Source of the DNA: Streptomyces sp. NBC_00341
GTDB lineage: Bacteria > Actinomycetota > Actinomycetes > Streptomycetales > Streptomycetaceae
Direction: 5' to 3'
Assembly: GCF_041435055.1 (NCBI RefSeq)
Contig: NZ_CP108002.1
Location: 186,001 to 250,000 of the forward strand
DNA: 64,000 nt
The stretch's first letter is position 1. Each line of letters opens with the position of its first letter. Shown here in pieces: positions 39,535 through 57,871 of the stretch. Made by a program: the position numbers and the translations under genes. The notes below the pieces were generated by a model. That model was given only the letters and a program-made list of their open reading frames with translations, ran no database searches and had not been told where the DNA came from.

Positions 39535-40749
39535 TCAGCCCAGCAGCAGCGACCTCGGCTGGGCGGAGAGCGCCCGGTCCAGGACGAGGGAGGCCGCACC
39601 GACGGCGGCCACGTTCTCGCCCAGGGTGGTCGAGGCGACGGTCGTGGCATGGGTCGCCCTGACGAACGGGGACCTGGCCACCATCGGCTCGATGGTGGCC
39701 AGGAGACGCTCACCCAGCACGTGCCAGGCAGGTCCGCCGAAGACGATGCTGTCGACGTCGAGGAGGGTCGCCGCCGCGCACACCCCCCGGCCGACGCGCA
39801 GCCCCAGGCGCTCGATGATGCCGTCCGCCTGGGCGTCCCCCTCCGCGGCGAGCCGCCCGAGGCGCTCCAGGCCGCTCTGCGCGTCGGCCGGATCGAGCAC
39901 GGTGTACTCGCCCCCGAGCACGCCGAGGGCGATGGCCTCCTCGACCAGGGTCCGCGTCGAGCAGGCGGCGCCGAGCCCGCCCACCTCGCCCGCGTTCCCG
40001 GAGACGCCGCGCAGCACGGTGTCGTCCACCACCAGCCCCATGCCGGACCCCGTACCGAGGTAGAAGAAGAGCAGGTTGCGGCTGTCGGTGGCCGCTCCCG
40101 CCCAGCGCTCGGCGACGACGGCGGCCGTGACGTCCTTGTCGAGCAGGGCCGGGAACCCGGTCGCCTCGCTGAGCCGGTCGCGCAGCGGATAGCGGCCCCA
40201 GCCATGCAGTTCGGGCGGCTCCACCACCCACCCCGCGGTGACGTCGATGGGGCCCGGCGCGGCGATGCCGAGGCCGAGGATCCGTCCGTCGTCGATCCCG
40301 GACTCCGCCACGATCCCGGACACGGACGCGGCCATGTCCGCGACGGTGCCGTCGGTGTCGCCGCCACTGGGGGTACGCCGGCTGCGCTGGGCCACGACCT
40401 TCCCGAGCAGGTCCACCAGGACGCAGGTGATCACGGCGGGGTCGAGATGGACACCCACCGCGTACCGGGAGGTGGGGACGATCTCCAGCAGGGTGCGGGG
40501 CTTTCCGCTGCCGGTGTTGTGCTTGCCCGACTCGCGGGCGAGGCCCTGGTCCAGCAGGCGTCGGGTGATGTTGGAGACGGTCTGCGCGGACAGCCCGGTG
40601 GCCTGCGCGAGCTCCACCCGGCTCAGGCCGCCGCGCCCCCGCCGGCGGATGGCGTCGAGGATCACGGACTCGTTGAAGTCCCCCATCCTCGGCAGGTTGG
40701 TGCCACGCCGGATGGCGCCCTTCTCCGTGCTCGCCGTCTTGCTCGTCAA
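39535..40749 (-). CDS. ROK-family transcriptional regulator (NagC/Mlc-like)
   Basis: A 404-residue repressor with a MarR-like winged helix (about 25-85; GGLSRVELAQATGLSAQTVS) and a ROK sugar-kinase-like domain (about 95-400; LGLGIAAPGPIDVTAG, FFYLGTGSGMGLVV). The usual ROK zinc site (GHxxx..CxCGxxGC) is reduced: only NAGEVGGLGAACSTRTLVEE is seen, so zinc binding is doubtful. TTG 40749 is chosen because GGGAGAGG precedes it; the next in-frame ATG is 22 codons later. At the downstream end of the glycan locus, it most likely represses the locus until a sugar or sugar phosphate binds. Confidence 0.88.
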   Translation of the reverse strand: MTSKTASTEKGAIRRGTNLPRMGDFNESVILDAIRRRGRGGLSRVELAQATGLSAQTVSNITRRLLDQGLARESGKHNTGSGKPRTLLEIVPTSRYAVGVHLDPAVITCVLVDLLGKVVAQRSRRTPSGGDTDGTVADMAASVSGIVAESGIDDGRILGLGIAAPGPIDVTAGWVVEPPELHGWGRYPLRDRLSEATGFPALLDKDVTAAVVAERWAGAATDSRNLLFFYLGTGSGMGLVVDDTVLRGVSGNAGEVGGLGAACSTRTLVEEAIALGVLGGEYTVLDPADAQSGLERLGRLAAEGDAQADGIIERLGLRVGRGVCAAATLLDVDSIVFGGPAWHVLGERLLATIEPMVARSPFVRATHATTVASTTLGENVAAVGAASLVLDRALSAQPRSLLLG

Positions 40750-40901
40750 CGTGCCTCTCCCAGCCTCGGCGCGCGGCGGCGGCGAAATCGCCGCCTCGCC
40801 TGCGACGGCAACAGAATCGATGGAATGGTACGACGCGGGTGGGACAGTGCGTCGGGGGCGGACGCGCCCCGCGGCACAACTGTCCCTCTCTCCGGGTGAC
40901 T

Positions 40902-43900
40902 TCACTTCCTCGCCGCCGGTCGCAGGCGCAGCGTACGGATCTGGAAGGGCCGGAACGCGAGGGCGACGGCCCCGTCCTCCGGCGCCAGCTCGCGCTCCGG
41001 CTGCTCCAGCAGGTCGCAGTCCTGTGCCCCGGCGAGCGGGAATCCGGCGCTCAGGCCGGCCCTGACCGCTCCCCCGCACGCCTCGTACAGCCGGACCACG
41101 ACGTCGCCGCTCCGGTCGTCGGCGAGCTTGACGGATTCCACCACCACATCCGTGGTGTCGAGCGTGACCAGTGCGGCCGTCTCCGCCGGGGCCGCCCGCA
41201 GCGGCAGGTTCAGCGCGTAGCCGCCCGCGACGGCCTCCTCGATCCCGGCGCCGGCCAGCAGCGCGTAGCCGAAGCGGTGGGTGCCCCGGTCGGCCTGCGG
41301 GTCGGGGCTGTGCGGGGAGCGCAGCAGGGTCAGGCGCAGCGTCGTGGTGGTCCCGCCGTCCTGGCGGGTGTCGCGGCGCACGTCGTGCCCGTAGGTCGAG
41401 TCGGTCAGCAGTGCGGCGCCCCAGCGCCGCTCGCCCACATGCACCCAGCGGTGCGCCCACAGTTCGAAGCGGGCGGCGTCCCAGCTGGTGTTCTCGTGGG
41501 TGGGCCGCTGCACATGGCCGAACTGGATCTCCGCGCTCTCCCGTTCCGCGTGCACGTCCAGCGGCCAGGCCGCCTTCAGCACCGTGTCGCGTTCCTGCCA
41601 GTCGATATCGTTGCGGACGGTCACCTGGCGGCTCTCGGCGGCGAGTTCGATGTGCTGGACGAACCGCGAGTCGCCGTGAACGCGCTCGACGCGCACCGAC
41701 GCGAGCAGCGGGCCCTCGTCCGCGAGTGCCACCGACTCGCACGTGTCGACGTCGTGCACGACGTCGCGGTAGTACGAGTCGATGTTCCACGCGGACCACA
41801 AGTTCGGGTCGTCGGGGTGGAGCTGGAGGAGGTTGCCGACGGCGCCGGGGGCGATCGCCTCCCGCCGTGCCGCGTGGTCGTACACCGAGGTGACCAGGCC
41901 GCGCCGGTCCACGACGACGGTCAGCACCCCGTTGTCGAGGACGAATCCGCCGTCCTGTGCGCGGGCCGTGACGGGCTCGCGGGCCTCTGCCGCGCCGCCG
42001 GAGGCCAGCGGTCCGGTCTCCGCGAGGACGGCCGTACGCCCGTCGGCGAGGCGCTGTGCGCCGGGGAACCCCGGGTCGCCGGCGAGCACGGCGACCTCGC
42101 GGCGCGCGTACGGCCCGGCGTTGAGCAGTGCGGGCCGGCCCGGCAGCCGCTCGGCCGCGTCTGCGATCAGCGTCTCCAGTTCGGCGTGGATCCCGCCGTA
42201 CTCCCGCTCGGCCTGCTGGTGCACCCAGGCGATGGACGAGCCCGGCAGGATGTCGTGGAACTGGTTGAGCAGGACCCGCTGCCACAGCGATTCGAGCCGT
42301 TCGTACGGGTAGGGCGCGCCGGACCGTACGGCGGCGGTGGCCGCCCACAGCTCGGCCTCGCGCAGCAGCGCCTCGCTGCGCCGGTTGCCCCGCTTGGTGC
42401 GGGCCTGGCTGGTGTAGGTGCCGCGATGGTTCTCCAGGTACAACTCGCCGCGCCAGACGGGCAGTCGCGCGCCCTCGCGTTCGGCGCGCGCCGCCTCGAA
42501 GAAGGCGTCGGGTGATTCGACCACGACCTTCGGTGAGCCTTCGAGGTCGCGCAGTCGGCGCGCCTTCTCCAGCATCGAGCGGCTGGGGCCGCCGCCGCCG
42601 TCCCCGTAGCCGAACGGGACGAGGGAGCGGGTGGCGACGCCCTTGTCGCTGAAGTTGCCCTCTGCGTGGGCGTTCTCCCTGGCCGTCAGTGAGGCGTTGT
42701 AGCTGTCGACGGGCGGGCAGTGGGTGAAGATGCGCGAGCCGTCGATGCCCTCCCATTCGAAGGTGTGGTGGGGCAGCCGGTTCGTCTCGTTCCAGGAGAG
42801 CTTCTGGGTGAGGAACCACTCGGCGCCCGCCAGTCTGGCGAGCTGCGGGTAGGCGGCGGTGTACCCGAACGAGTCGGGCAGCCAGATCCCGGGCTGATCC
42901 ACGCCGAACTCCTCGGCGAAGAAGCGCCGCCCGTAGACGAGTTGGCGGGCGAGCGCCTCACCGCCCGGCAGGTTTCCGTCCGCCTCGACCCACATGCCGC
43001 CGACCGGGACCCAGTTGCCGTCGGCCGCCGCCTTCTTCATCCGGGCGTAGATGTCCGGGCGCTGTTGCTTCATCCACGCGTACTGCTGGGCGGAGGAGCA
43101 GGCGAAGACCAGCTCGGGGTATTCCTGGGCGAGGGTGGTCATGTTGGTGAAGGTGCGCGCGCACTTGCGTACGGTCTCGCGCACCGGCCACAGCCATGCC
43201 GAGTCGATGTGTGCGTGGCCGACGGCGGAGAGGGTGTGCGCGGAGGCGTGCGCGGGCCGGGACAGCACGTCGGCCAGGAGCCCCCTGGCCCGCGCCGCCG
43301 TTCCGGCGACATCCGCCGGGTCCACGGCGTCGGCGGCGTGGCGCAGGGCGTAGAGGATCTCGTGGCGCCTGGTGGAGCTGAGCGGCAGCTCGTGCATCAG
43401 CTCGTCGAGCACTTCGATGTCGTGGACGAGGTGCCACACGTCTTCCTCGCGCACCGCGATGTCGGCCTGCTTGAGGTGGTAGAGCGGAGCGTTTCCGGCG
43501 GTCTCCAGGGAGCCGTGGTGCAGGTGGAGTCCGGCGCTGCCGACGATCGGCGGGTTGGCGGCCAGCTCGATCAGCAGGTCGACGGTGGCGCCTCCGGCGG
43601 CGGAGTCGTCGAGGAGCACGCTGCGGTTGTACGGGTGCAGGCCCTGGAGTGGCGTGCCCAGGCCGTCGTGGACCAGGCCCTCGGCCTGGCCGCCGGGCCC
43701 CTTGGACAGGTCGAAGTCGAGGTCGAAGACCGCCTCCACGCGGCGCCCCGACCAGTCGCCGGGAATGTCGGTGCGGGCCCGCATCCAGGTCGTCTGCCAG
43801 GGGCTGCCCCAGGCGTCACCGACCGTGAAGGGCTCGTAGTCGGCGCCCAGTGCCTCGGCGACGGGGACGGGCTCGCCGTCCACGCGCCAGGCGCTCAGGG

Positions 43901-43994
43901 CCAGCGGGCGTACGGCGCTGTAGACGGCGGGGCGAACGACCCGGTCGAGCAGCTTGCGGATCCGGGCCTCGATGATCCGGCGGTCGTCATGCAC
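40902..43994 (-). CDS. Alpha-mannosidase, glycoside hydrolase family 38 (first copy)
   Basis: A 1030-residue cytoplasmic exo-alpha-mannosidase. After an N-terminal jelly-roll-like region (1-245) the catalytic domain opens with GHAHIDSAWLWPVRETVRK (about 259-277), giving the zinc ligands His and Asp. The nucleophile Asp lies in WLPDSFGYTAAYPQ (about residue 374). MWVEADGNLPGGEAL and FEWEGIDGSRIFTHCPPVD are further family blocks, followed by the long beta C-terminal domain. There is no signal peptide. GTG 43994 follows GGAAGG. It overlaps the DUF2264 gene by 8 bases. It should release alpha-linked mannose from imported oligosaccharides. Paralogue at 50909. Confidence 0.95.
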   Translation of the reverse strand: MHDDRRIIEARIRKLLDRVVRPAVYSAVRPLALSAWRVDGEPVPVAEALGADYEPFTVGDAWGSPWQTTWMRARTDIPGDWSGRRVEAVFDLDFDLSKGPGGQAEGLVHDGLGTPLQGLHPYNRSVLLDDSAAGGATVDLLIELAANPPIVGSAGLHLHHGSLETAGNAPLYHLKQADIAVREEDVWHLVHDIEVLDELMHELPLSSTRRHEILYALRHAADAVDPADVAGTAARARGLLADVLSRPAHASAHTLSAVGHAHIDSAWLWPVRETVRKCARTFTNMTTLAQEYPELVFACSSAQQYAWMKQQRPDIYARMKKAAADGNWVPVGGMWVEADGNLPGGEALARQLVYGRRFFAEEFGVDQPGIWLPDSFGYTAAYPQLARLAGAEWFLTQKLSWNETNRLPHHTFEWEGIDGSRIFTHCPPVDSYNASLTARENAHAEGNFSDKGVATRSLVPFGYGDGGGGPSRSMLEKARRLRDLEGSPKVVVESPDAFFEAARAEREGARLPVWRGELYLENHRGTYTSQARTKRGNRRSEALLREAELWAATAAVRSGAPYPYERLESLWQRVLLNQFHDILPGSSIAWVHQQAEREYGGIHAELETLIADAAERLPGRPALLNAGPYARREVAVLAGDPGFPGAQRLADGRTAVLAETGPLASGGAAEAREPVTARAQDGGFVLDNGVLTVVVDRRGLVTSVYDHAARREAIAPGAVGNLLQLHPDDPNLWSAWNIDSYYRDVVHDVDTCESVALADEGPLLASVRVERVHGDSRFVQHIELAAESRQVTVRNDIDWQERDTVLKAAWPLDVHAERESAEIQFGHVQRPTHENTSWDAARFELWAHRWVHVGERRWGAALLTDSTYGHDVRRDTRQDGGTTTTLRLTLLRSPHSPDPQADRGTHRFGYALLAGAGIEEAVAGGYALNLPLRAAPAETAALVTLDTTDVVVESVKLADDRSGDVVVRLYEACGGAVRAGLSAGFPLAGAQDCDLLEQPERELAPEDGAVALAFRPFQIRTLRLRPAARK

Positions 43995-45990
43995 GGAGCT
44001 GGTCCTTCCAGGGGTCGTACGCGGAGTCGTCGGGGGCGGGCAGCCGGATGGTGTCGTGCGCGCCGTCGGCCCAGGTGACGTCCGCGAGCAGGGCGTCGCC
44101 CTCGGCGCGGGTGGTGACCTGGGGCAGGGCGCCGGGGCCGGTGCCGCCGAGGTGGACGAGGGCGACGTGGATCGCGCCGTCTGTGACGGGTCCCTCGGTC
44201 GCCACGACCGGGGTGGCGGAGGTGCCTCCGAGGGCGTTGGAGCCGGCTCCGGCCACCGAGGCCGCGCGGGGCAGCCCGTGTGCCCCGATGACGACGGAGA
44301 CCAGCCCGTCGGCTCCCTCGACCCGGGCCGCGGCCCCCTCCACGGTTGCGGCGCCGGCCCCGGAGCGGGGATCGACGGCCAGCGCCCAGCCACCGACACG
44401 CAGCCGGTGACCGGCCGCCGCGCCGCCGTCCGCACGGTCCTCGGCACAGCCGTCGACCCGTACGGCGCGCACCTCGACGGACCCCCGCAGGGCCGACCCC
44501 GTGGTGATCCAGGGGCCCAGGGTGTAGGGGGTGTCGGGCCCGCCGAAGACGTCCCAGGTCGCATCCTTCGGCCAGTGCGCGCGGGACCGGGAGACGGCCG
44601 TGGCCCCGTCGATGGAGATCCTTTCCGCGGGGCGCCGGTGCGAGGCGCGTCCCGCCGCGTCCAGCAGGACGACCGCGTTGTCGAGCGGCTCCGCGTCCGC
44701 GCTGCCGCCGGGGACGGTGGGGTCGCCGGGGGTCTCAGGGGCGGTGTGCGTCGAGTAGGCGAAGCGGGCGTAGCCGGGGTCGTCGGCGTGCGGGCGGGCC
44801 GGGTCCGCGTGGTCGCCGCCGTGGTTGACGACGCGGACGACCCCGTCGGCGGCGGTGCCGGAGACGAGCCAGCCGGGCGCGGTCAGGGTCCGCGTGAAGT
44901 CGCCCTGTTCGACGGGCAGCGGGGGCGCCGCCTCGGTCCACACCGGGTGCTCGGGCGGCAGGGCGAGGCCGATGAACCCCTTGCTCGCCCAGTACGGGGA
45001 CGCGGGGCCCGAGTACCCCTGCAAAATGCCGCGGAAGGGCCGGTGCCAGCCGAGTGTCAGCAGGCCGTGCTCGTCGGTGGCGCCGTGGTCGGTGAAGTGG
45101 TCCAGCATCCGGCCGGCGAGCGCCCGGGTCTCCCCCGGCGCGAGCGGTGTGGCGTCGAACAGTGCGCCGGTCCACAGCGGGGCGAGCGCGGCGTGCCGGT
45201 AGGTGAGGGAGCGGCCGTGGACGAGCGGTGAGCCGTTGCCGCCGATCAGGAGCCGCTGGTCCGCCAGGAAGCGGTGCAGCCTGGTCCGGTAGCGGTCGAG
45301 GAGTCCGGCGGGCGCGGCGTCGCCGAGGATGCGGCAGAACCACAGCGGGTACAGGTGCATGGCCCAGCCGTTGTAGTGGTCGAAGTTGCGGTGGGCGGCG
45401 CCGGTGAGCCCGTCCGAGTACCAGCCCTCGCCCGCGTACCAGCCGTCGGTGAGGGCGATGACCCGGTCGAGGTCCTGCTGGCGCCACTGTCCGCCGGCCG
45501 TGCGGGCGAACGCCTCGGTGACGCCCTGGAACCAGATCCAGTTGTTGCCCGGCATCGGGTCGCCCACCATGGGCGCCAGCCAGTCCAGGACCCGCTGCCG
45601 GACCCGGTCGTCGAGGCGGTCCCAGATCCACGGCCGGGTCTCGTGCAGGGCGATCGCGATCGACGCGGCCTCGACCTTCGCCTGGCCGCGTTCGGCGAAG
45701 GTGGGCCAGCGCTCCGGGTTCGCGGGGTCGGTGCCCGCGGCCAGGCCCGCGGCGTACCAGCCGGCGAGGTCGAGCGGGTCGGCTCCGCCCGCTCCCGCCA
45801 GCCGGAATCCGGCCAGCAGGAAGGTGCGGGCGAAGCCTTCGAGCCCGTCGCTGTGCGCGCCGTTGTGGCTCGGGACGCCGGGCAGGCTGATCAGGGCGTG
45901 CTCGTCGGTGGCGTACGGCCGTACGGCGAGCAGCATCCGGTCTGCGGTGCGCTCCCAGTGGGCGCGGTCCTCTGCGGGGGTGCGGTTCAT
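43987..45990 (-). CDS. DUF2264-domain protein
   Basis: A 667-residue cytoplasmic protein. The N-terminal two thirds (about 1-380) is a DUF2264 (alpha/alpha)6-type region with NNWIWFQGVTEAFARTAGGQ, NFDHYNGWAMHLYPLWF and SLTYRHAALAPLW; the rest is beta-rich, as in heparinase II/III-like proteins. DUF2264 proteins cluster with polysaccharide-degradation genes and are suspected glycosidases or lyases, but no proven reaction can be assigned. It overlaps both neighbours (ATGA with the binding protein, 8 bases with the mannosidase), so it belongs to the transporter/mannosidase operon. Confidence 0.88.
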   Translation of the reverse strand: MNRTPAEDRAHWERTADRMLLAVRPYATDEHALISLPGVPSHNGAHSDGLEGFARTFLLAGFRLAGAGGADPLDLAGWYAAGLAAGTDPANPERWPTFAERGQAKVEAASIAIALHETRPWIWDRLDDRVRQRVLDWLAPMVGDPMPGNNWIWFQGVTEAFARTAGGQWRQQDLDRVIALTDGWYAGEGWYSDGLTGAAHRNFDHYNGWAMHLYPLWFCRILGDAAPAGLLDRYRTRLHRFLADQRLLIGGNGSPLVHGRSLTYRHAALAPLWTGALFDATPLAPGETRALAGRMLDHFTDHGATDEHGLLTLGWHRPFRGILQGYSGPASPYWASKGFIGLALPPEHPVWTEAAPPLPVEQGDFTRTLTAPGWLVSGTAADGVVRVVNHGGDHADPARPHADDPGYARFAYSTHTAPETPGDPTVPGGSADAEPLDNAVVLLDAAGRASHRRPAERISIDGATAVSRSRAHWPKDATWDVFGGPDTPYTLGPWITTGSALRGSVEVRAVRVDGCAEDRADGGAAAGHRLRVGGWALAVDPRSGAGAATVEGAAARVEGADGLVSVVIGAHGLPRAASVAGAGSNALGGTSATPVVATEGPVTDGAIHVALVHLGGTGPGALPQVTTRAEGDALLADVTWADGAHDTIRLPAPDDSAYDPWKDQLRA

Positions 45991-47615
45991 GACTGGCGGC
46001 TCTCCCATGCCTGTTCGTACTCCGCGCGGATCCGGTCGCCGGCCTGCTTGCGCCAGTTCCGCATCGCCTCGTCCCACTCCTTGAGGGGGACGCGGCCCTG
46101 CATGATGCCCTTGCGGGTGTCGTCCAGGGTCTTCTGGAGCAGCGCGGACATCTTGGCGTTGGTCGGCGAGTAGAGGTCCTCGGTCGGATTGGCGAGCAGC
46201 CGTTCGACCGCTTCCTTCTGGAACGCGTACTGCGTCTTCACGATCTCCGGCCCGGACGGGTAGTACAGCGTGAAGGGCGCGTCCGTGGCGAAGATCGTCG
46301 GCAGGGTGACCTCGGCCTGGCCCTTCGGGGTGAGGATCGGGTCGGTTCCCTTGAGGGTGTGGTCCGCGCCGGGGACGCCGTACTTGCGCAGCAGGTAGCC
46401 GTCCGTACCGAAGGGCGAGGCGAGTGCGTTCATCGCGCGCAGGATCTGCTTGATCCGCTCCTTGGGCGCCTTCTTGATGATGAGCATGCCGTAGTAGGAC
46501 TGGCCCTGCCATTGGACGCCCTCGCCGCCGTCCCAGCCGGGCGCGAGCAGGTAGCCGAGTTCGAAGCCCTTCGTGGCCGGGGCGTACATGGAGTAGTAGT
46601 CGTTCCAGGCCACGGGCCCGTCGGGGTTCAGGACAGTCTGTCCGGTGCCGAACCAGTCCTTCACCTTCCCGGTGACGCTGTAGGCGTCCGGGTGCATCAC
46701 GCCGGCCTTGGTCATCCGGCGGACCGCGTCCAGGGTCTGCCTGGCCTCCTCGGTCTCGAACCACCAGGTGAACTTCCCTCCTTCCTCACGCCACTTGTTG
46801 GGTCCCCCGAGCATCTGCATCACGGTGTCGAACGCGGTGATGGGGTCGCCCATGGCGTACTGGCTGTGCTTGCGGTCGGTGACGTCCTTGCACAGCCGGA
46901 AGAACTCCTGCCAGCTCTTCGGGTCCGGGTCGAGACCGCGTGCGCGGATCAGGTCGAGCCGGGTGAAGATCGGGCCGCCGGAGAGCGGGCGGGGCATCGG
47001 TATCGCGTAGATACCGCCGTTGAGCACGCAGGGCGCCCAGGAGGGGGACGGGATGTTCGCGAGGTACGGGTAGTCCCGGATGCCGTCACCGGAGAGATGC
47101 TCGGTCAGGTCCTGGAAGAGCGCGTCCAGCATGCCCGGTGTGGCGGCGGAGTTCTGGCTCGGCGGCAGCATCAGCATGGTGTCGGGCAGATCGCCGCCCG
47201 CGACGGTCACGGCGAACTTGTTCGGGTAGTCGCTGACCGGTGAGATCTGGAAGTTGAGATCGCACCCGACGCTCCTGTTCAGGGCCTGCCACATGACGTT
47301 GTCCGTGACCGGCGGCGGCACCGGGTTGAAGATCAGCGTCATGATGTCGATGGCCGGGCCCTTGGCGGGCGGGCCGCCCGGCAGTGACTTCACCGGCTTG
47401 GCCGGGAAGTTGAGATACCCGGGCGCGACACCGGCGGCGGTGGCCGGCATGGATGTCGGGACGCCGTTGTACGGGATGTAGGCGGGCAGCGGGACCTTGG
47501 CGTTGGCGGCCTTGGTCGACACGGGGCGGTAGTCCCCGCAGCCGGCCAGGGTCAGGCCGGCCGTGACACCGGCGGCCGAGGCGAGGAAGCCGCGACGACT
47601 GAGTGATGAGTTCAT
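45987..47615 (-). CDS. Carbohydrate ABC transporter substrate-binding lipoprotein (CUT1, LplA/YtcQ-like)
   Basis: A 542-residue exported binding protein, larger than usual, as in LplA/YtcQ-type oligosaccharide systems. The N-terminus has a twin-arginine-like signal (SLSRRGFLASAAG) ending in lipobox LTLAGC, so it may be Tat-exported and lipidated. The mature fold includes DLPDTMLMLPPSQNS, FTRLDLIRARGLDPDPKSWQ and NPDGPVAWNDYYSMY. ATG 47615 has AGGGG upstream. It follows the two permease genes and overlaps the DUF2264 start. It should bind an oligosaccharide released outside the cell, perhaps mannose-containing judged by the downstream enzymes. Confidence 0.92.
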   Translation of the reverse strand: MNSSLSRRGFLASAAGVTAGLTLAGCGDYRPVSTKAANAKVPLPAYIPYNGVPTSMPATAAGVAPGYLNFPAKPVKSLPGGPPAKGPAIDIMTLIFNPVPPPVTDNVMWQALNRSVGCDLNFQISPVSDYPNKFAVTVAGGDLPDTMLMLPPSQNSAATPGMLDALFQDLTEHLSGDGIRDYPYLANIPSPSWAPCVLNGGIYAIPMPRPLSGGPIFTRLDLIRARGLDPDPKSWQEFFRLCKDVTDRKHSQYAMGDPITAFDTVMQMLGGPNKWREEGGKFTWWFETEEARQTLDAVRRMTKAGVMHPDAYSVTGKVKDWFGTGQTVLNPDGPVAWNDYYSMYAPATKGFELGYLLAPGWDGGEGVQWQGQSYYGMLIIKKAPKERIKQILRAMNALASPFGTDGYLLRKYGVPGADHTLKGTDPILTPKGQAEVTLPTIFATDAPFTLYYPSGPEIVKTQYAFQKEAVERLLANPTEDLYSPTNAKMSALLQKTLDDTRKGIMQGRVPLKEWDEAMRNWRKQAGDRIRAEYEQAWESRQS

Positions 47616-47629: not shown

Positions 47630-48571
47630 TTATCCCTTCACCGCTCCGACCATCACGCCCTTGTTCATGTGGCGCTGGAGGAAGGGGTAGACGATCACGA
47701 TGGGCACGATCGACAGCACGAGGATCGCGGCCTGGAGGGACTGGGCGGGCGGCAGCGGCGCCCCGGCGGCGACGTCCACCTGACCGCCGCTGAGCGCCGC
47801 GTTGTTGACGACATAGGTACGCAGCACGAGCTGCATGGGCCACTTGGACGCGTCGTTGATGTAGAGCAGCGCGTTGAAGAAGGCGTTCCAGTAGGTCACC
47901 GCGTAGAACAGGCCGATGACGGCCACCGCGGCTTTGGAGAGCGGGAGCACGATCCTGGTGAGGATCGTCGTCTCGGAGGCGCCGTCGATGCGCGCGGAGT
48001 CCAGGAGCTCCTTGGGGATGCTCATGAAGAAGGACCGCAGCACGATCACGTTGAACGCGTTGATCATGGTCGGCAGGATCAGCGACCAGTAGCTGTTGAT
48101 CAGGCCGAGCTGTTTGACCATCAGGTAGCTGGGGATGACGCCCGGGGCGAACAGCATGGTCATCAGCAGCATGATGAGGACCGGCCGGTGGCCGAAGGAG
48201 CCGGGCCGGCTGAGCCCGTACGCCAGCATGATGGAGCAGACGAGGCTCAGCGCGGTGCCGACCACGGTGATGCCGACGCTGACCAGCATGGCCTTGGACA
48301 CCAGGCCGCCGGAGAGCAGCGCCGAGTAGGCGGACCAGCTGGGGTTGTCGGGCCACAGGACGTAGCCGCCGGCCCTGGTGACCTGGCCGGTGTCGGCGAG
48401 CGAGGTCGAGATGATCGCGAGGAACGGCAGCAGGACCAGCACGACGCAGATCAGCAGGATCAGCGATTTGAGGGTGCGCCACGGCAGGGAGCCCGGCGTT
48501 TCCCCGGGGATGGCGCTGTAGGACCTGCGGGGCCTGCGGCGCACCGGGTGTGCGGGCGACAGTGTTGTCAT
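47630..48571 (-). CDS. Carbohydrate ABC transporter permease (CUT1, LplC/YtcP-like)
   Basis: A 313-residue permease with six membrane helices from about residue 38. The ATPase-coupling EAA loop reads ELLDSARIDGASETTILTRI (the conserved DGA). Other features are LADTGQVTRAGGYVLWP after helix 1 and the C-terminal FLQRHMNKGVMVGAVKG, which matches LplC/YtcP proteins closely. ATG 48571 overlaps the first permease stop (ATGA). It forms the channel with the next-upstream permease. No ATPase gene lies in the cluster, so a shared MsiK-type ATPase elsewhere is presumed. Confidence 0.94.
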   Translation of the reverse strand: MTTLSPAHPVRRRPRRSYSAIPGETPGSLPWRTLKSLILLICVVLVLLPFLAIISTSLADTGQVTRAGGYVLWPDNPSWSAYSALLSGGLVSKAMLVSVGITVVGTALSLVCSIMLAYGLSRPGSFGHRPVLIMLLMTMLFAPGVIPSYLMVKQLGLINSYWSLILPTMINAFNVIVLRSFFMSIPKELLDSARIDGASETTILTRIVLPLSKAAVAVIGLFYAVTYWNAFFNALLYINDASKWPMQLVLRTYVVNNAALSGGQVDVAAGAPLPPAQSLQAAILVLSIVPIVIVYPFLQRHMNKGVMVGAVKG

Positions 48572-50908: not shown

Positions 50909-53900
50909 TCAGGCGCGGGGCAGGCGCAGGGTGACCAGTTGGAACGGCCGCAGCGCGAGCACCACGCCGCCGGCGTTCTCCGCCGGCGGTTCGGCGTCGG
51001 TGAGCGGGCGCTCCAGGAGGTCCGTCGGGACGGCCCTCGCGGTGGCGAAGCCGTCGGCGCGCACGGTGGCGCGGGCCCGTCCGCCATGCGCTTCGTAGAG
51101 GCGTACGACCAGGTCACCGCTGCGGTCGTCGGCCAGCTTCACCGCGCTGACCACGACGGCGTCGTTGTCCACCGTCACCAGTGGCGCGACCTCGGCGGCG
51201 GTGCCGGTGACCCGGCGCTCCGGCAGGTTGGCCCGGTGGCCCTCGCGGACCGCGTCACCGATCGTCGCGCCCGGCACCAGTGCGTGGTGGAACCGGTGGA
51301 CGCCCTGGTCGGTCTCGGGGTCGGGGTAGCGGGGCGCACGCAGCAGCGACGCCCGTACGGTCGTGGTCGTGCCGGCGTCGGTCCCGGTCCGCACGGCACG
51401 CGTCACGTCGTGGCCGTACGTCGCGTCGTTCACGATCGCGACACCCCAGCCCGGCTCGTCGACGTGCACGAAACGGTGGTTGCAGGCCTCGAACTTGGCC
51501 CACTCCCAGCTCGTGTTCTGGTGGGTGGGCCGGTACACGTGGCCGAACTGGGTCTCGGAGGCGTACCGGTCGGCCTTCACGTCCAGGGGGAAGGCCAGTT
51601 TCAGGAAGCGTTCGGTCTCGTGCCAGTCGACCTCGGTGGCGATGTCGAGCCGCTTGGCACGGGCCGGGACCGTCAGGTGCTGGACGACGCGGGAGTCACC
51701 GAAGGACCGCTCGACGCGCACCGCCGCTCCCTCGACGCCCAGTTCGGTGACGTCGGTGAGGTCACTGCCGACGTTCCGGTAGAAGGCGTCGACGTCCCAG
51801 GCGTCCCACTGGTTGGGGAAGTCGGGGTGCAGTTGGAGGAGGTTGGCCGCCTGGCCCGGCGCGATGGCCTCGCGCTCCGCGCCGTGGTCGTACACGGAGA
51901 CGACAAGGCCGCGTCCGTCGATCTCGACCCGCAACAGTCCGTTGTCCAGGACGTATCCGCCACCGTCGAGCGGTACGGGAACTACCGCCTCTTTGTGGGC
52001 CGGCCGGGGCGAAGCACCACCGGCGGGTACCGAACCACGGTTGTGCGGTGCCGAGTTGAAGGCCAGATCGGTGCCGCCGGACGCGTCACCGGCCAGTGCG
52101 CGCTGCGCCCCGCCGATGATGTCCTCCAGCTCGGCGGCGAGCCGGGCGTAGGTCTCGCGCGCCTCGCGGTGCACCCAGGCGATGGACGAGCCGGGCAGGA
52201 TGTCGTGGAACTGGTGCAGCAGCACCGTCTTCCAGATCCGGTCCAGTTCCTCGTAGGGGTAGGGGAACGCGGTCCGCACCGCAGCGGTCGTGGCCCACAG
52301 TTCGGCCTCCGACAGAAGGGACTCGCTGCGCCGGTTGCCGCGCTTCGTCTGCGCCTGGCTGGTCAGGGTGGCGCGGTGCAGTTCGAGGTACAGTTCACCG
52401 ACCCAGACGGGCGGGTCGGGGTACTCGGCCTCGGCCTTGGTGAAGAAGCCGGCGGGAGTCTCCCACTCCACGGTCGCCGAGCCTTCGAGGCTGCCCATGC
52501 GCGCGGCCTTGGCGACCATCTCGCGGGTGGTGCCGCCCCCGCCGTCACCGAATCCGGTCGGTGCGAGCGACCGCGAGGCGACCCCCTTCTCCTTGAAATT
52601 CCGTGCGGCGTGGGCGATCTGCCGGCCGTTCATCTCGCAGTTGTACGAGTCGACGGGCGGGAAGTGCGTGAAGATCCGGGTGCCGTCGATGCCCTCCCAC
52701 TGGAAGGTGTGGTGCGGGAACTTGTTGGTCCTGCTCCAGGAGATCTTCTGCGTCAGCAGCCACTTGGAGCCGGCCGCCTTGATGATCTGCGGCAGCCCGG
52801 CCGCGAAGCCGAAGGTGTCGGGCAGCCACGCCTCGTCGTTCTCGATGCCGAACTCGTCGAGGAAGAACCGCTTGCCGTGCACGAACTGACGGGCCATCGC
52901 CTCCGAGCCCGGCATGTTCGTGTCCGACTCGACCCACATCCCGCCGGTGGGCACGAACCGGCCCTCCGCGACCGCCTTCTTGACCTTCGTGTACACCTGC
53001 GGCCGGTGCTCCTTGATCCAGGCGAACTGCTGCGCCTGCGACATCGCGAAGACGAAGTCCGGCTCCTCCTCCAGGAGGGCCGTCATGTTCGATGTCGTAC
53101 GGGCGACCTTGCGCACCGTCTCACGCAGCGGCCACAGCCAGGCGGAGTCGATGTGCGCGTGCCCGACCGCGCTGATCCGGTGCGCGGCGGGAGCGGCCGG
53201 AGCGGCGAGCACACCGGCCAGTTCCTCGCGCGCGGCCCGCGCCGTACCGTTCACGTCCTGGAGGTCGACGGCGTCCAGCGCCCGGCCGACCGCCCGCAGG
53301 ATCTCCCAGCGGCGCGCTCCCTCGACCGGCAGTTCCGCCATCAGCCCGCCGAGGACCTCCAGGTCCATGACCAGGTTCCACACCGTCTCGTCGAACACGG
53401 CCAGGTTCATCTCGCCCAGGACGTACTGCGGCGCATCGCCGGCGGTGGCCCTGTCGCCCATCGGCGTCGGCTGGAACGGCACCCCGCTCGCGTCGATGTC
53501 GGGGTTGGAGGCGGCCTCGATCCGCCAGTCGACCTGCTCCCCGCCGGCCACCGGTGATCCGACCCGTACGTAGGAGTTGCGCGGGTGAAGGCCCTTGACC
53601 GGGGTGCCGTCGGGCCGGTGGACGAGGCCCTCGCACTGGAAGCCGGGCGTACGCGGGGTGAAGCCGAGGTCGAGCACGGCCTCGACGGTGCGGCCCGCCC
53701 ACTCCGCGGGGACCGTCCCGGTGACCTTGAACCAGCTGGTCCCCCATGGCGCACCCCACGCGGTGCCCGGGGTGATGGGACGGTCCGGCGCCGTGAGGCC
53801 CTCGGCCACGGGGACGGGCTCGCCCGACGTGGACCAGATCTCCACGTTCAGGGGGGTGGTGACGGGGTGGACGGCCGGCCGAATGCGTTCGTTGAGGACG

Positions 53901-53941
53901 CGGTCCAGACGTGCTTCGACCAGGTTCCGGTCGTCGTGCAT
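50909..53941 (-). CDS. Alpha-mannosidase, glycoside hydrolase family 38 (second copy)
   Basis: A 1010-residue paralogue of the mannosidase at 40.9 kb. Matching landmarks: GHAHIDSAWLWPLRETVRK (about 259-277) with zinc-binding His and Asp, nucleophile Asp in WLPDTFGFAAGLPQ (about residue 375), MWVESDTNMPGSEAM, FQWEGIDGTRIFTHFPPVD. No signal peptide. ATG 53941 has AGGAG 9 bases upstream. The two copies differ through the N-terminal and C-terminal beta domains, so they probably split the substrate range (different linkages or aglycones). It lies downstream of the Gfo/Idh gene and may share its transcript. Confidence 0.95.
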   Translation of the reverse strand: MHDDRNLVEARLDRVLNERIRPAVHPVTTPLNVEIWSTSGEPVPVAEGLTAPDRPITPGTAWGAPWGTSWFKVTGTVPAEWAGRTVEAVLDLGFTPRTPGFQCEGLVHRPDGTPVKGLHPRNSYVRVGSPVAGGEQVDWRIEAASNPDIDASGVPFQPTPMGDRATAGDAPQYVLGEMNLAVFDETVWNLVMDLEVLGGLMAELPVEGARRWEILRAVGRALDAVDLQDVNGTARAAREELAGVLAAPAAPAAHRISAVGHAHIDSAWLWPLRETVRKVARTTSNMTALLEEEPDFVFAMSQAQQFAWIKEHRPQVYTKVKKAVAEGRFVPTGGMWVESDTNMPGSEAMARQFVHGKRFFLDEFGIENDEAWLPDTFGFAAGLPQIIKAAGSKWLLTQKISWSRTNKFPHHTFQWEGIDGTRIFTHFPPVDSYNCEMNGRQIAHAARNFKEKGVASRSLAPTGFGDGGGGTTREMVAKAARMGSLEGSATVEWETPAGFFTKAEAEYPDPPVWVGELYLELHRATLTSQAQTKRGNRRSESLLSEAELWATTAAVRTAFPYPYEELDRIWKTVLLHQFHDILPGSSIAWVHREARETYARLAAELEDIIGGAQRALAGDASGGTDLAFNSAPHNRGSVPAGGASPRPAHKEAVVPVPLDGGGYVLDNGLLRVEIDGRGLVVSVYDHGAEREAIAPGQAANLLQLHPDFPNQWDAWDVDAFYRNVGSDLTDVTELGVEGAAVRVERSFGDSRVVQHLTVPARAKRLDIATEVDWHETERFLKLAFPLDVKADRYASETQFGHVYRPTHQNTSWEWAKFEACNHRFVHVDEPGWGVAIVNDATYGHDVTRAVRTGTDAGTTTTVRASLLRAPRYPDPETDQGVHRFHHALVPGATIGDAVREGHRANLPERRVTGTAAEVAPLVTVDNDAVVVSAVKLADDRSGDLVVRLYEAHGGRARATVRADGFATARAVPTDLLERPLTDAEPPAENAGGVVLALRPFQLVTLRLPRA

Positions 53942-54069: not shown

Positions 54070-55167
54070 TCAGAGGCTGGTGTCCGCCACCGGAGCGGGG
54101 CGCTCGCAGGTGGTGGTCACCGGCAGTGCCCGGCCCTCGTCCGCCGCGTCCATGAGCGTGAGCATGACGTCCAGGACATGTGCGGCGAGCTCTGCGGACG
54201 CGCGGTGCGGGCGGCCGCTGTGGAGCGCCTCGGCCAGATCCGCGAGACCCGCGCCCCGGCCCGCGCCCCGGTATCCGGCCGACACGGGCAGCGTTTCCCA
54301 GCCGTCGCCGCGGTGGATCTCGACGGGGCCGTCGAAGTGGTTCGGGTCCGGCACGGACAGGGAGGCGCCGGTGCCGTGCACCTCGATGCGGGGCAGCCGC
54401 GCGGCACGAACGTCGAAGCTCATCACCAGCGTGGACAGGGCCCCGTCCGCGTGCTCCAGGACGCCCGTGATGTGGGTGTCCACCTCGACCTGGAAGGTCT
54501 GCCCCGCGCGGGGTCCGCTGCCGATGGTCCGCTCGGCGCGGGGCCGGGAGGACGCACCGGTCACCTTGACCACGGGGCCGAGCAGGTGGACCAGAGCCGA
54601 CAGGTAGTACGGGCCCATGTCGAGCAGGGGGCCGCCGCCGGGGCGGTAGTAGAACTCCGGATCCGGGTGCCACTTCTCGTGGCCCGCGGTCGTCATGAAG
54701 GCGGTGGCCGCGACCGGGCGGCCGATCAGACCGTCGTCAACGGCCTTGCGCGCGGTCTGCGTTCCGGTGCCCAGGACGGTGTCGGGGGCGCAGCAGAGCC
54801 GCAGTCCGGCCGCACGAGCCGCGGCGAGCACGGCGTCGGCCTCCTTGCGGTCGGCGGCGAGGGGCTTCTCGCCGTACACGTGCTTGCCCGCGGCGAGTGC
54901 CGTCAGCGCGACGTCCGCGTGCGCGGCCGGGACGGTGAGGTTGAGGACGGCGTCCACGTCGTCGCGGGCGACCAGGCCGGCGACGGTCGGCGCGAGGGAG
55001 ACCCCGTCACCGGCCTGCTCCGCGACGGCCCGCGCGCGGCCGGCGTCGAGGTCGGTGACGGCGGTGAGCCGCACGGACGTCAGCCGTTCCAGCGTGGACA
55101 GATACGCGCCGCTGATCTTTCCCGCGCCGACGATGCCGATGTTCAAGGGCTTCAGCGGCACGCCCAC
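54070..55167 (-). CDS. Gfo/Idh/MocA-family oxidoreductase
   Basis: A 365-residue NAD(P)-dependent sugar dehydrogenase-like enzyme. The Rossmann start is LNIGIVGAGKISGAYL, the catalytic-lysine motif is VYGEKPLA, and the substrate-side blocks are KWHPDPEFYYRPGGGPLLDM and YYLSALVHLLGPV. GTG 55167 follows GAGGGG; a second GTG at 55161 is also possible. It overlaps the ThuA gene end by about 16 bases. Gfo/Idh and ThuA proteins recur together in disaccharide-oxidising (3-keto-glucoside) pathways, so this pair may oxidise a sugar released in this locus. Confidence 0.9.
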   Translation of the reverse strand: MGVPLKPLNIGIVGAGKISGAYLSTLERLTSVRLTAVTDLDAGRARAVAEQAGDGVSLAPTVAGLVARDDVDAVLNLTVPAAHADVALTALAAGKHVYGEKPLAADRKEADAVLAAARAAGLRLCCAPDTVLGTGTQTARKAVDDGLIGRPVAATAFMTTAGHEKWHPDPEFYYRPGGGPLLDMGPYYLSALVHLLGPVVKVTGASSRPRAERTIGSGPRAGQTFQVEVDTHITGVLEHADGALSTLVMSFDVRAARLPRIEVHGTGASLSVPDPNHFDGPVEIHRGDGWETLPVSAGYRGAGRGAGLADLAEALHSGRPHRASAELAAHVLDVMLTLMDAADEGRALPVTTTCERPAPVADTSL

Positions 55168-55808
55168 AGCAGTCCCCTCTCGGTGAGCGTGCGGACCTGA
55201 GGCACCTCGAAATCGTCGGGCTTGTGCCCGATGGTCGAGACGAAGACCCGGCCTGCTCCCCAGGTCCTGGTCCACACGGCGGGCATCACAGCGGGCCCGT
55301 CGTGCGGTTCCGCGGCCGGGAAGGTGGTGGTGGCCAGGACGTCGATACGCGGGTCGGTGAGGACCCAGTACTGCTCGGTGTGCACGGAGAAGTCGTCGAG
55401 GCCCGCGATGACCGGGTGGTCCGCGCGCTCGGGCAGGAAGTTGTAGGTGTGGTCGTGGTAGCCGGGCGGGTGCATCACGAACTTGCCGCCGGTCAGCAGG
55501 TGGTAGCCGTGGTCGTGGAAGCAGTCGACGATGCCACCGTGCCAGCCGGCGAGACCGGTGCCCGCCCGTACGGCCGCGGACAGGTTCTCGCGCTGCTCGG
55601 GGGTGATGGTGCCCATCGTCCAGCAGTGCACGATGAGGTCGGTTGCGGCGAGTCTCTCCGCGTCCTCGTACACCGCGAGATCCTCGGAGGTCTCGACGGC
55701 GAACCCCTGCTCCTTGAGGAACGGAAGGAATCCGTCGCTGATCGTCACGGGCTGGTGCCCGTTCCAACCGCCGCGGACGACGAGCGCCCGCCTGGTGTGG
55801 GTGGTCAC
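55152..55808 (-). CDS. ThuA-domain (trehalose-utilisation-like) protein
   Basis: A 218-residue class-I-glutamine-amidotransferase-like fold of the ThuA family. Conserved blocks: RALVVRGGWNGHQPVTISDG, LIVHCWTMGTITPEQRENL, GWHGGIVDCFHDHGYHLLTG and FVSTIGHKPDDFE. The cysteine of true amidotransferases is not at the usual place. In rhizobia ThuA and its partner ThuB (a Gfo/Idh protein, as next here) convert disaccharides to 3-keto forms. GTG 55808 is chosen over GTG 55838 because GGGAG precedes it. First gene of the ThuA/Gfo/mannosidase unit, with a sigma-70-like promoter about 130 bases upstream. Confidence 0.88.
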   Translation of the reverse strand: MTTHTRRALVVRGGWNGHQPVTISDGFLPFLKEQGFAVETSEDLAVYEDAERLAATDLIVHCWTMGTITPEQRENLSAAVRAGTGLAGWHGGIVDCFHDHGYHLLTGGKFVMHPPGYHDHTYNFLPERADHPVIAGLDDFSVHTEQYWVLTDPRIDVLATTTFPAAEPHDGPAVMPAVWTRTWGAGRVFVSTIGHKPDDFEVPQVRTLTERGLLWACR

Positions 55809-55941: not shown

Positions 55942-55970
55942 ACGTACGAACGGCGAACATACTTTGTCAA
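55942..55970 (-). promoter_or_regulatory. Sigma-70-like promoter of the ThuA/Gfo/mannosidase unit
   Basis: On the minus strand TTGACA (55965-55970), 17 bases, then GTACGT (55942-55947), or TACGTT with an 18-base spacer. The -35 lies in the element GTATTGACAAA, which is repeated upstream of the beta-helix gene at 58068. The start of transcription would be near 55935. Confidence 0.55.
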
Positions 55971-56029
55971 TACACTTTACGAAGTGCGTCGCAGAGGCTT
56001 CGGCCGGGCCGCCTCGGCCAGGCGTGATG

Positions 56030-57871
56030 TCAGTCGGTGATGTGGAACGTGGCCGGGGAATCGTTCCGCAGCGCCACTTGGCCCGGACGGAGATTCGTGA
56101 CCGTGTTGCCCGCGAACGCTCCGGTGCCGGTGACGCCGGAACCGACCAGGATTCCCTGAGTCTCGGGACTGTCGATGGTGTTGTTCTTCAGCGTCACATC
56201 GACCCGCGTCAGGTCGATGAAGAGGCCGGCCCGGAAGGCCCCGCGCATCACGTTGTCGCTCAGGGTGACATGCGTATAGGCGTCGGGGAAGAGCGAGGTG
56301 CTGTTCGGGGAACCGATTCGGACCCCGTGCCGGACGCTGTTCCAGCCGCCACCGCCGATCAGGACGTTGCCGCTGATCGTGGCGGACTCCAGGGGGTGTC
56401 CGGTGTCCCCGAACACGCCGATGTCCAGGGCACTGTTCGAGGACACGCTGTTCACGAGGTTGTCGCGGACCTCGACGTTCTCGCCGCCGGCCACTCGAAG
56501 GCCGTTGGCCCACCAGGGCGCGATCGCGGTGTTGTTGAGGATCTTCGCCCCCGTCACCTGACCGTTGGTGCCGCTCGCGCCCGCGTCGGAGTACGTCGCG
56601 AAGGAGTCGTCACCGGTGTTCCGGGCAAAGTTGTTGCGGACGGTGATGTTGTCGCCCAGCTTGTCCGGATCCTTCGTGTTGCCGTTGTTGATGTTGAACC
56701 CGTCGCCGTAGCCGTCCGAGGTCCGGCTGTTCTCGATGAGGCCGTTCGATCCGGAGAGCCAGTTCGCGTCGGTGTGCCGCGTCCAGATCCGCTGGACGAG
56801 CCATCCGCCGGCACCGCTGGCGTTGATGCCGTAGTCCGCGCCGCCGGTGCCGCCGACCCCGCGCCACACGGCGTTCGAATCGATCTGGATGTCGCGCAGC
56901 GTGGTGCCAGAACCCACCAGGGTCTTCGAGCGCCACGACGTGGCCGGCAGCGGGCTCTTGCGGTACAGCGTCGAATACCACATCCCGGCGCCCTCCACCG
57001 TCACACCGGTGAAGTCGAGCGGCGTGGGTTCGAGGCTGTTCGTCAGGTATCTGCCGCGCGGGATCCACACCGTCTTCCCCTGCAGGCGGGCGGCGTTCAC
57101 CGTGTTCTGGATGGCGACCGTGGAGTCCTTCCCGGACTCCGGATCTGCGCCATTACTGACCACGGAGAGGGAGTTCGCAGGCTGGGACCGCGCGGGTCCC
57201 ACGTTTTCCAGGTCGACGGAGTCGATGTCGTAGACCGAGGCCGTGTTGCCGGTTCCCTTACGGAACGTGACGGCGCTGCCGGCCGGTACCGGGGTGCCCG
57301 AGATCCAGACGGGGAAGTCGTTGTAGAAGCGGTAGGGCATCCCGCCGGCCTTGGGGTCGTCCGGGTTCGTGGTCGCCTCGCGGTAGTTCCACGCCTGCGC
57401 GGAACTCAGCGTGATCGCCTGACGGAACGTGCCGTTGACGTACAGGTCCAGCGACGCGCTGGTGCCGCCGCCGTCCGGCGCGTCGGGGATCGAGGCACGG
57501 ACCACGAGGGTGTTGGCGCTCCGGCCCGAGCTGTTCGGCACCGACACGGCGTCACCCGGGTTCGTGAGCTCGACCAGCGCGTTGCCCGACGCCTCGGTCT
57601 CCAGGGAGGCCGAGGTCGGGACCGTCGCTCCGGGCCTGATCGAGCGGACGCGGGCGGCGCCGCCGAGCGTCCCGGATTCGGCCTCGACCGTCACGAACGG
57701 CGTGGTGGCACCGGCCGTCTCGGCTATCCCGGCGGAGGCCCCCGCGCCGGCCCCCGCAGCGGCCTCCGCGTAGCCTCCGGCGCCGGGAAATACGCCGAAC
57801 AGCGTTCCGGCGACAACGGCAGCGACGCCACCGAGCCAACGGGAGTGTCCTCGAAGTCTTCTGCGGTGCAT
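56030..57871 (-). CDS. Secreted right-handed beta-helix polysaccharide-degrading enzyme (GH87-like) with N-terminal CBM
   Basis: A 613-residue exported enzyme. The signal peptide (1-38) ends GGYAEAAA. A carbohydrate-binding module of CBM6/35 type follows (about 58-225; TVEAESGTLGG, YDIDSVDLENV). The catalytic part (about 235-612) is a pectate-lyase-like beta-helix opening GKTVWIPRGRYLTNSL and GVTVEGAGMWYSTLYRKS. Acidic clusters SDGYGDGFNINNG and NTGDDSFATYSD sit where GH87 alpha-1,3-glucanases and mycodextranases keep their catalytic aspartates. It is probably an endo-acting glycanase that starts degradation outside the cell. The promoter at 58047 resembles that of the ThuA unit. Confidence 0.82.
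   Translation of the reverse strand: MHRRRLRGHSRWLGGVAAVVAGTLFGVFPGAGGYAEAAAGAGAGASAGIAETAGATTPFVTVEAESGTLGGAARVRSIRPGATVPTSASLETEASGNALVELTNPGDAVSVPNSSGRSANTLVVRASIPDAPDGGGTSASLDLYVNGTFRQAITLSSAQAWNYREATTNPDDPKAGGMPYRFYNDFPVWISGTPVPAGSAVTFRKGTGNTASVYDIDSVDLENVGPARSQPANSLSVVSNGADPESGKDSTVAIQNTVNAARLQGKTVWIPRGRYLTNSLEPTPLDFTGVTVEGAGMWYSTLYRKSPLPATSWRSKTLVGSGTTLRDIQIDSNAVWRGVGGTGGADYGINASGAGGWLVQRIWTRHTDANWLSGSNGLIENSRTSDGYGDGFNINNGNTKDPDKLGDNITVRNNFARNTGDDSFATYSDAGASGTNGQVTGAKILNNTAIAPWWANGLRVAGGENVEVRDNLVNSVSSNSALDIGVFGDTGHPLESATISGNVLIGGGGWNSVRHGVRIGSPNSTSLFPDAYTHVTLSDNVMRGAFRAGLFIDLTRVDVTLKNNTIDSPETQGILVGSGVTGTGAFAGNTVTNLRPGQVALRNDSPATFHITD

What the first reader, a model, noticed from the sequence alone, without database searches (positions are those of the whole stretch)
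39535..57871. An 18-kb glycan-utilisation locus with twin GH38 alpha-mannosidases
ROK repressor, two GH38 enzymes, DUF2264, CUT1 transporter, hydroxyacid dehydrogenase, Gfo/Idh, ThuA and a secreted GH87-like beta-helix enzyme are all on one strand. The combination suggests an uptake-first route for an alpha-mannoside- or alpha-glucan-containing polymer (fungal or plant wall) with an oxidative 3-keto-sugar step. I know of no described pathway with this exact set.
Basis: partly seen in the sequence, partly recalled or inferred. Interest (0 to 1): 0.7.

Follow-up and report, generated by a model that had tools for sequence, protein, structure and literature searches.

The report
Streptomyces uptake locus for acidic mannans
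A soil Streptomyces carries a co-regulated gene set that probably cuts an acidic, mannose-containing polysaccharide outside the cell, imports the pieces and takes off mannose and glucuronic acid inside; it matters because the glucuronic-acid step seems to run without the enzyme usually needed for it.

Summary
In detail: eleven genes, one strand, stated coordinates. The interpretation needs changing. DUF2264 matches the beta-D-glucuronate dehydratase (ex-GH154) fold with its active-site residues conserved, and its relatives recur with the hydroxyacid dehydrogenase beside uronate lyases and sugar importers. So the substrate very likely carries glucuronic acid as well as alpha-mannose: import first, then exo-trimming by two GH38 enzymes plus a uronate cassette. 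The GH38 enzymes are old paralogs (55% identical), not twins. Of 16 loci with a close GH38b relative, 10 also carry DUF2264 and 11 the Gfo/Idh gene; of 82 control GH38 loci, none. A 14-base promoter element lies ahead of the operon in 13 of 16, in none of 109 control loci (2.2 Mb), and ahead of the secreted GH87-like gene: co-regulation is supported. No GH88/GH105 gene was found in the genome; what removes the unsaturated uronate is open, as in published actinobacterial xanthan degraders, the closest known system. The polymer (fungal glucuronoxylomannan favoured; glucuronomannan or xanthan-like next) is not shown. New variant of a known kind.

The parts
39535..40686 (-). ROK-family repressor (winged HTH + ROK)
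   Evidence: Pfam PF00480 1.3e-30, MarR_2; orthologs at 77-89% in 8 of 16 related loci
40902..43994 (-). GH38a alpha-mannosidase, cytoplasmic by its N-terminus (by eye)
   Evidence: Pfam GH38N/mid/C; HAHID, WLPD, QFHD motifs present, own clade in the GH38 tree
43987..45990 (-). DUF2264: predicted uronate (beta-glucuronate) dehydratase with C-terminal beta-sandwich
45987..47615 (-). Lipoprotein solute-binding protein of the CUT1 importer
   Evidence: PF13416 4e-10; RR and LAGC motifs seen in the translation
47630..48571 (-). CUT1 permease (UgpE/MalG type)
   Evidence: NCBIfam matches to UgpE and GlcU, below their cut-offs
48568..49539 (-). CUT1 permease (UgpA/MalF type)
   Evidence: PF00528 2.8e-13; NCBIfam UgpA, below cut-off
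49671..50774 (-). HADH: D-2-hydroxyacid dehydrogenase, proposed to act on the alpha-keto acid from the uronate
   Evidence: PF02826 5.7e-42; relatives in 11 of 21 fetched DUF2264 loci
50909..53941 (-). GH38b alpha-mannosidase
   Evidence: Pfam GH38N 8.5e-93; PDB 7ufs 849 bits; clade sister to other streptomycete GH38
54070..55161 (-). Gfo/Idh/MocA oxidoreductase
   Evidence: PF01408, PF22725; in 11 of 16 related loci; best PDB sugar 3-ketoreductase 9e-20
55152..55808 (-). ThuA-family protein, first gene of the operon
   Evidence: PF06283 2.6e-49; in 10 of 16 related loci
55963..55973 (-). Promoter element in front of thuA (GTATTGACAAA core; 3 mismatches to the 14-base form)
   Evidence: element at 13 of 16 related loci
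56030..57871 (-). Secreted GH87-like beta-helix enzyme (proposed depolymerase)
   Evidence: PF22815 1.3e-32; 7c7d/5zru alpha-1,3-glucanases; D390, D421, D422 invariant in 25 sequences; model
58067..58080 (-). Same promoter element (perfect ACGTATTGACAAAC) in front of the GH87-like gene
   Evidence: its first 13 bases occur once in the 9.06-Mb assembly at up to 1 mismatch, and the backward control also once

Best explanation
An uptake-first utilisation locus for an acidic polysaccharide that contains alpha-mannose and beta-glucuronic acid. Shown by sequence: the gene set, its partial conservation, the shared promoter element, and the glucuronate-dehydratase fold and active site of DUF2264. Inferred: the secreted GH87-like enzyme cuts the polymer; the lipoprotein and two permeases, with an ATPase from elsewhere in the genome, import oligosaccharides; in the cytoplasm GH38a and GH38b remove alpha-mannose and DUF2264 dehydrates each newly exposed terminal beta-GlcA to the 4,5-unsaturated form; after its release HADH acts on the resulting alpha-keto acid; Gfo/Idh and ThuA carry out a further redox step; ROK represses both promoters until sugar arrives. 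The confidence below is for this general claim. The polymer I favour is fungal glucuronoxylomannan (alpha-1,3-mannan with beta-GlcA branches), at roughly 0.25-0.3 by itself; rival 1 differs only in the polymer.
Confidence: 0.58

Rival explanations
1. Same uronate-plus-mannose logic, but the polymer is a plant-gum type glucuronomannan (alternating 4-linked beta-GlcA and 2-linked alpha-Man) or a xanthan-like side chain, not glucuronoxylomannan.
For: Alternating exo-cleavage by GH38 and DUF2264 would suit such a backbone, like the GH109/GDH cycle proposed for chondroitin. Sister locus has a PL33-type lyase and esterases. Actinobacterial xanthan regions share GH38, ABC importer and HADH and lack GH88.
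Against: No PL8, GH9 or GH3 in this locus; the secreted enzyme is GH87-like, a family known for alpha-1,3 bonds.
Confidence: 0.27
2. A neutral alpha-mannan or N-glycan locus, as in bifidobacteria; DUF2264 and HADH do something unrelated to uronates.
For: GH38b's closest solved relatives are GH38 alpha-mannosidases 7ufs/7ufr/7ufu/7uft (that these are bifidobacterial N-glycan enzymes is recalled, and a paper search for them found none). ROK plus importer plus GH38 is a set I recall from such loci.
Against: No endo-glycosidase, GH125 or hexosaminidase in the locus; the dehydratase active site is intact; none of 82 other actinobacterial GH38 loci carries DUF2264 or HADH in the stretch held.
Confidence: 0.1
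3. One reading: alpha-glucan (mutan) use with an oxidative 3-keto step by Gfo/Idh and ThuA.
For: GH87 domains with the catalytic Asp triad; Gfo/Idh best PDB match is a sugar 3-ketoreductase, DgpA among the others; ThuA and Gfo/Idh are kept together in 10 of 16 loci.
Against: No alpha-glucosidase and no 3-keto-glycoside hydrolase domain in the locus; NCBIfam 3-dehydrogenase models far below cut-off.
Confidence: 0.05

Closest known systems
Xanthan utilisation region of Paenarthrobacter ilicis 6C and Microbacterium sp. XT11 (PMC12772297; passages read)
   Same: Actinobacterial; GH38 (in P. ilicis one gene and one pseudogene copy, in XT11 one named), ABC importer with solute-binding protein, hydroxyacid dehydrogenase, no GH88 although glucuronic acid must be removed; import before side-chain trimming.
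   Different: Has PL8, GH9, GH3 and LacI regulators; no DUF2264, ThuA, Gfo/Idh or GH87-like gene is named in its gene list. Here no PL8/GH9/GH3, a ROK repressor, two intact GH38 genes and DUF2264.
Bacteroides caccae PUL25 chondroitin cycle with the ex-GH154 dehydratase BcGDH (PMC12269599; abstract, section 9 and passages read)
   Same: DUF2264-family dehydratase primes terminal beta-GlcA; an exo-glycosidase for the other sugar is thought to alternate with it; same fold and active-site residues.
   Different: Uses PL35 + GH88 + GH109 on chondroitin; here GH38 would take the place of GH109, no GH88 was found in the genome, HADH is present, and the protein has an extra C-terminal beta-sandwich.
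GH87 alpha-1,3-glucanases (7c7d Streptomyces thermodiastaticus; Paenibacillus FH11 6k0m)
   Same: Two-domain architecture, catalytic Asp residues aligned.
   Different: About 21-31% identity in structural alignments; shares a promoter element with an alpha-mannosidase/uronate operon, not with alpha-glucosidases; substrate unknown.
Bifidobacterium longum GH38 N-glycan loci (recalled; 7ufs/7ufr)
   Same: ROK, importer and several GH38 enzymes acting after uptake (recalled).
   Different: No endo-glycosidase or GH125 in this locus; DUF2264 and HADH present.

Membership tests
DUF2264 / ex-GH154 uronate dehydratases | (alpha/alpha)6 toroid fold of BcGDH | tested here: met
DUF2264 / ex-GH154 uronate dehydratases | Ten active-site residues whose alanine mutants lost activity in BcGDH | tested here: met
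   Eight line up in the HMMER alignment (residues named); two (E74, R78) lie outside it and were matched by motif spacing only; all ten columns invariant in A1 and A2
DUF2264 / ex-GH154 uronate dehydratases | Dehydratase activity on a beta-glucuronide | not testable with these tools
   needs an assay
Dehydratase-GH88 pathway | A GH88/GH105 unsaturated uronyl hydrolase partner | tested here: not met
   PF07470: 0 in own genome. Of 30 genomes examined 11 have a match over the cut-off, 19 do not; not all of the 30 hold DUF2264 and some are drafts
GH38 | Catalytic domains and Zn/nucleophile motifs (motifs recalled) | tested here: met
GH87 | Two-domain catalytic unit and the three Asp mutated in 6k0p/6k0q/6k0s (D1045, D1068, D1069) | tested here: met
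   Pfam above cut-off; D390, D421, D422 aligned with 7c7d residues of the same 23/24 spacing and invariant; GH87 fills Foldseek ranks 1-7
GH87 | Endo-hydrolysis of alpha-1,3-glucan | not testable with these tools
   needs an assay
Actinobacterial xanthan region | PL8 lyase, GH9 endoxanthanase and GH3 in the region | tested here: not met
   None among the locus genes; a PL8 lies at C1:7.90 Mb with another DUF2264
Actinobacterial xanthan region | GH38, ABC importer, hydroxyacid dehydrogenase, no GH88 | tested here: met
   against PMC12772297; orthology of the genes was not tested
3-keto-glycoside pathway | Gfo/Idh glycoside 3-dehydrogenase of a named family | tested here: inconclusive
   BT_2158_fam and BT_2159_fam 26 and 24 bits, cut-offs 750 and 650; a sugar 3-ketoreductase is best by PDB sequence
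3-keto-glycoside pathway | 3-keto-glycoside hydrolase (DUF1080, recalled) in the locus | tested here: not met
   no such domain in the locus genes; genome not searched for it
Bifidobacterial N-glycan locus | Endo-beta-N-acetylglucosaminidase or GH125 companion (recalled) | tested here: not met
   none in the locus; genome not searched

The most novel reading that the evidence does not exclude
This is the first utilisation locus for fungal glucuronoxylomannan in a Streptomyces: the GH87-like enzyme is an endo-alpha-1,3-mannan depolymerase, and glucuronic acid is removed without any GH88/GH105, by a DUF2264-HADH cassette (with or without Gfo/Idh-ThuA) that also answers who removes glucuronate in GH88-less xanthan and GAG degraders.
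Probability: 0.15. Interest if true: 0.8.

Novelty: new variant of a known kind. Interest (0 to 1): 0.52.

Why it matters
The family called GH154 was reported in 2025 to be a dehydratase that works with a GH88 partner (PMC12269599). Streptomycetes and some other Actinobacteria carry it in import loci, several with uronate lyases, and in genomes where no GH88/GH105 was found; who removes glucuronate is stated as an open question for actinobacterial xanthan degraders (PMC12772297). The recurring DUF2264-HADH pair gives a concrete, testable candidate. The locus also offers genes to try on acidic fungal or plant mannans; two searches of the held papers listed no gene-level bacterial pathway for glucuronoxylomannan, only a Tremella-degrading soil consortium (PMC11858309, one passage seen).

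Tried and rejected
Recent GH38 duplication: rejected; 55% identity and separate clades. A second real copy of the locus at C1:1-51531: treated as an assembly fold-back, because the start of the contig is palindromic; first read the centre as non-palindromic because of an off-by-one shift, corrected. KduI as an indicator of the classical uronate route: PF04962 was found in 9 of 11 genomes, own included, but I did not tell KduI from IolB, so it says little. Sigma-70 scan: 0 promoter-like sites, 6 terminator-like sites against 4.5 expected, uninformative. Phylum-wide GH38a search: 18 loci fetched, none with DUF2264 or HADH, used as control. Own-genome search for further copies of the promoter element: counts no higher than the backward controls, so no further target is claimed. 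Tremella-degrading consortium paper: GH38, GH87 and PL8 do not occur in its text, GH47 and GH163 do. PDB by sequence gave nothing for the solute-binding protein or ThuA. Papers with GH154 and hydroxyacid dehydrogenase: 0; with DUF2264: 0; with GH38, GH154 and Streptomyces: 3, of which I read passages of one, a CAZyme list. AlgE-like epimerase reading of the GH87-like protein: not favoured since the Asp triad of GH87 is kept and the DPH motif of epimerases (recalled) is not seen, but ranks AlgE6 first on the beta-helix alone.
Full report
Check of the observation. Exact genes are in the parts list. GH38a/DUF2264, DUF2264/SBP, the two permeases, and Gfo-Idh/ThuA overlap by 4-10 bases; the other gaps are 14, 128-134, 215 and 221 bases. 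The order of transcription is thuA, gfo, GH38b, HADH, permease, permease, SBP, DUF2264, GH38a, rok, with the secreted GH87-like gene upstream under its own promoter. No transport ATPase is encoded in the locus. The two GH38 proteins both keep HAHID, WLPD and QFHD motifs, but they are 55% identical and sit in different clades of a 44-sequence tree: GH38b is sister to other streptomycete GH38 enzymes, GH38a forms its own clade. They are paralogs brought together, not twins.

What travels with it. I fetched the surroundings of 21 DUF2264 loci reached by DUF2264 or SBP searches, besides the window type (L045, L143-L154, L156-L158, L162-L165, L167). Eleven have an HADH relative in the stretch (L045, L144, L145, L146, L152, L154, L156, L158, L162, L163, L165) and 8 have a PL33, PL8 or heparinase-type lyase (L045, L143, L144, L146, L154, L158, L162, L164). 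Many more DUF2264 hits listed were not looked at. Two loci beside which a gene was identified by Pfam (L147, L148) have a GH43 with a ricin-type lectin domain and no HADH, so the family is not tied to one glycan. Two more loci, reached through HADH and therefore not counted, show DUF2264 and HADH overlapping by 4 bases in Streptomyces fungicidicus and Chelatococcus plasmids; a third shows a polysaccharide lyase, importer and HADH without DUF2264. The window's own genome has two more DUF2264 loci, one with a PL8 lyase, an importer and HADH. In Rhizobium the set is heparinase-type lyase, importer, GH88 and DUF2264; in Glaciihabitans it is DUF2264, Gfo/Idh, a dihydrodipicolinate-synthase-family protein, glycerate kinase, importer and HADH. 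This ties DUF2264 and HADH to uronate-containing glycans. HADH as a reductase of the released alpha-keto acid is my inference.

The missing partner. PF07470 (GH88 and GH105) gave no match in the own genome. Over 30 genomes examined have a match over the family cut-off and 19 do not, among them two (G646, G620) with PL33-DUF2264-HADH loci and G121, with PL8 and PL33 loci and only sub-threshold matches. In G530 a GH88-type gene does sit in the DUF2264-PL33 locus, so both arrangements exist. Not all 30 genomes hold DUF2264 and some are drafts. The authors of the Paenarthrobacter xanthan study say the same step is unexplained there (PMC12772297, passages read).

Conservation of the locus. A scan of genome contigs with GH38b confirmed 465 stretches and kept 80 loci: 16 at 82-89% identity and 64 at 75-78%. 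Among the 16 (Streptomyces, Streptacidiphilus, Actinacidiphila): Gfo/Idh in 11, ThuA in 10, DUF2264 in 10, GH38a orthologs (75% or more) in 10, HADH in 6 at 71% or more and 2 more at 46-47%, SBP in 5 at 49% or more, orthologous ROK in 8, GH87-like in 2 at 68-74% and 1 at 34%. Several loci are cut by the 10-kb flank or a contig end, so these are lower bounds. L059 keeps none of these genes except GH38b and has a different importer. The 64 other loci and 18 further GH38 loci from the phylum contain none of DUF2264, HADH, ThuA, Gfo/Idh or SBP by the same test; some of them are short. In 297 family genomes the SBP at 49% or more occurs in three (own, G121, G095), and the GH87-like protein at 70% or more in two (own, G121); in G121 it directly follows the SBP. 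The GH87-like family itself is wider (509 proteins), so the link is not exclusive.

Regulation. GTATTGACAAA (up to 1 mismatch) occurs twice in the window, in front of thuA and of the GH87-like gene; 0.06 expected. The longer element ACGTATTGACAAAC (up to 2 mismatches) is found ahead of the operon in 13 of 16 loci and nowhere in 109 control loci of 2,214,674 bases; in L051 a further one-mismatch site lies ahead of its divergent GH87-like gene, in L056 none does. Sixteen sites share a TTGACA box, about 17 bases, and TTCgTAggTTC. The thuA site of the window has 3 mismatches to the 14-mer. In the 9.06-Mb assembly the first 13 bases occur once at up to 1 mismatch, at the GH87-like gene; the backward control also gives 1. 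A longer 25-base pattern gives 5 hits, the two locus sites among them, against 5 for its control, so no further target is shown. Where ROK can be judged, 9 of 9 loci with the orthologous ROK have the element (8 of the 16 plus the window), and 1 of 5 without it (L125 yes; L057, L059, L065, L034 no); Fisher p 0.005. The loci are related, the motif was first seen in the window, and four loci cut before rok (L051, L054, L055, L056, all with the element) are left out.

Substrate. Alpha-mannose is indicated by GH38, beta-GlcA by DUF2264, and an alpha-1,3 backbone only weakly by GH87. Glucuronoxylomannan fits all three (its structure is recalled), and a 74% DUF2264 relative is found in Streptomyces tremellae, described as isolated from a Tremella fuciformis culture (title in the reference list of PMC9090473); I did not see that strain's gene neighbourhood. 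Against it: a PL33-type lyase and esterases in the sister locus would suit a polymer with 4-linked GlcA, and no xylosidase is in the locus. So the polymer remains open.

Verdict. A real, partly conserved, co-regulated locus of a known general kind (secreted enzyme, importer, exo-enzymes, repressor), with a new combination and an unsolved uronate step. Closest known: actinobacterial xanthan regions; closest enzyme logic: the B. caccae chondroitin cycle.

Noticed in passing
G000 contig C1:1-237531 (window = C1:186001-250000): The contig starts with what looks like a 237.5-kb palindrome (centre about 118766): the compared stretches, about 102 kb of each 118.8-kb arm, agree at every base but one at the centre. 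Probably an assembly fold-back at a chromosome end, which would put the locus about 107-125 kb from the telomere.
   Followed up: partly
window 138-8894: A separate sugar-acid locus: GntR/FCD regulators, mandelate-racemase/enolase-type enzyme, ribose-type ABC importer and L-rhamnose mutarotase.
   Followed up: no
G000:C1:7.89-7.92 Mb (L045) and C1:7.94 Mb (L156): Two more DUF2264 loci in the same genome, one with PL8 lyase, M60 and M1 peptidases, a GH141-like beta-helix protein and an importer, looking like a glycosaminoglycan or glycoprotein locus.
   Followed up: partly
L060:19559-21724, L034:9242-11416, L057:678-2906: ROK genes called as about 720-aa frames, in L060 with an extra N-terminal helix-turn-helix stretch; may be a gene-caller artefact or an unusual long ROK regulator.
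   Followed up: no
window 58935-59807 and 58148-58834: Methyltransf_19 SAM-methyltransferase and a plus-strand alpha/beta hydrolase bound the locus upstream; not counted as part of it.
   Followed up: no
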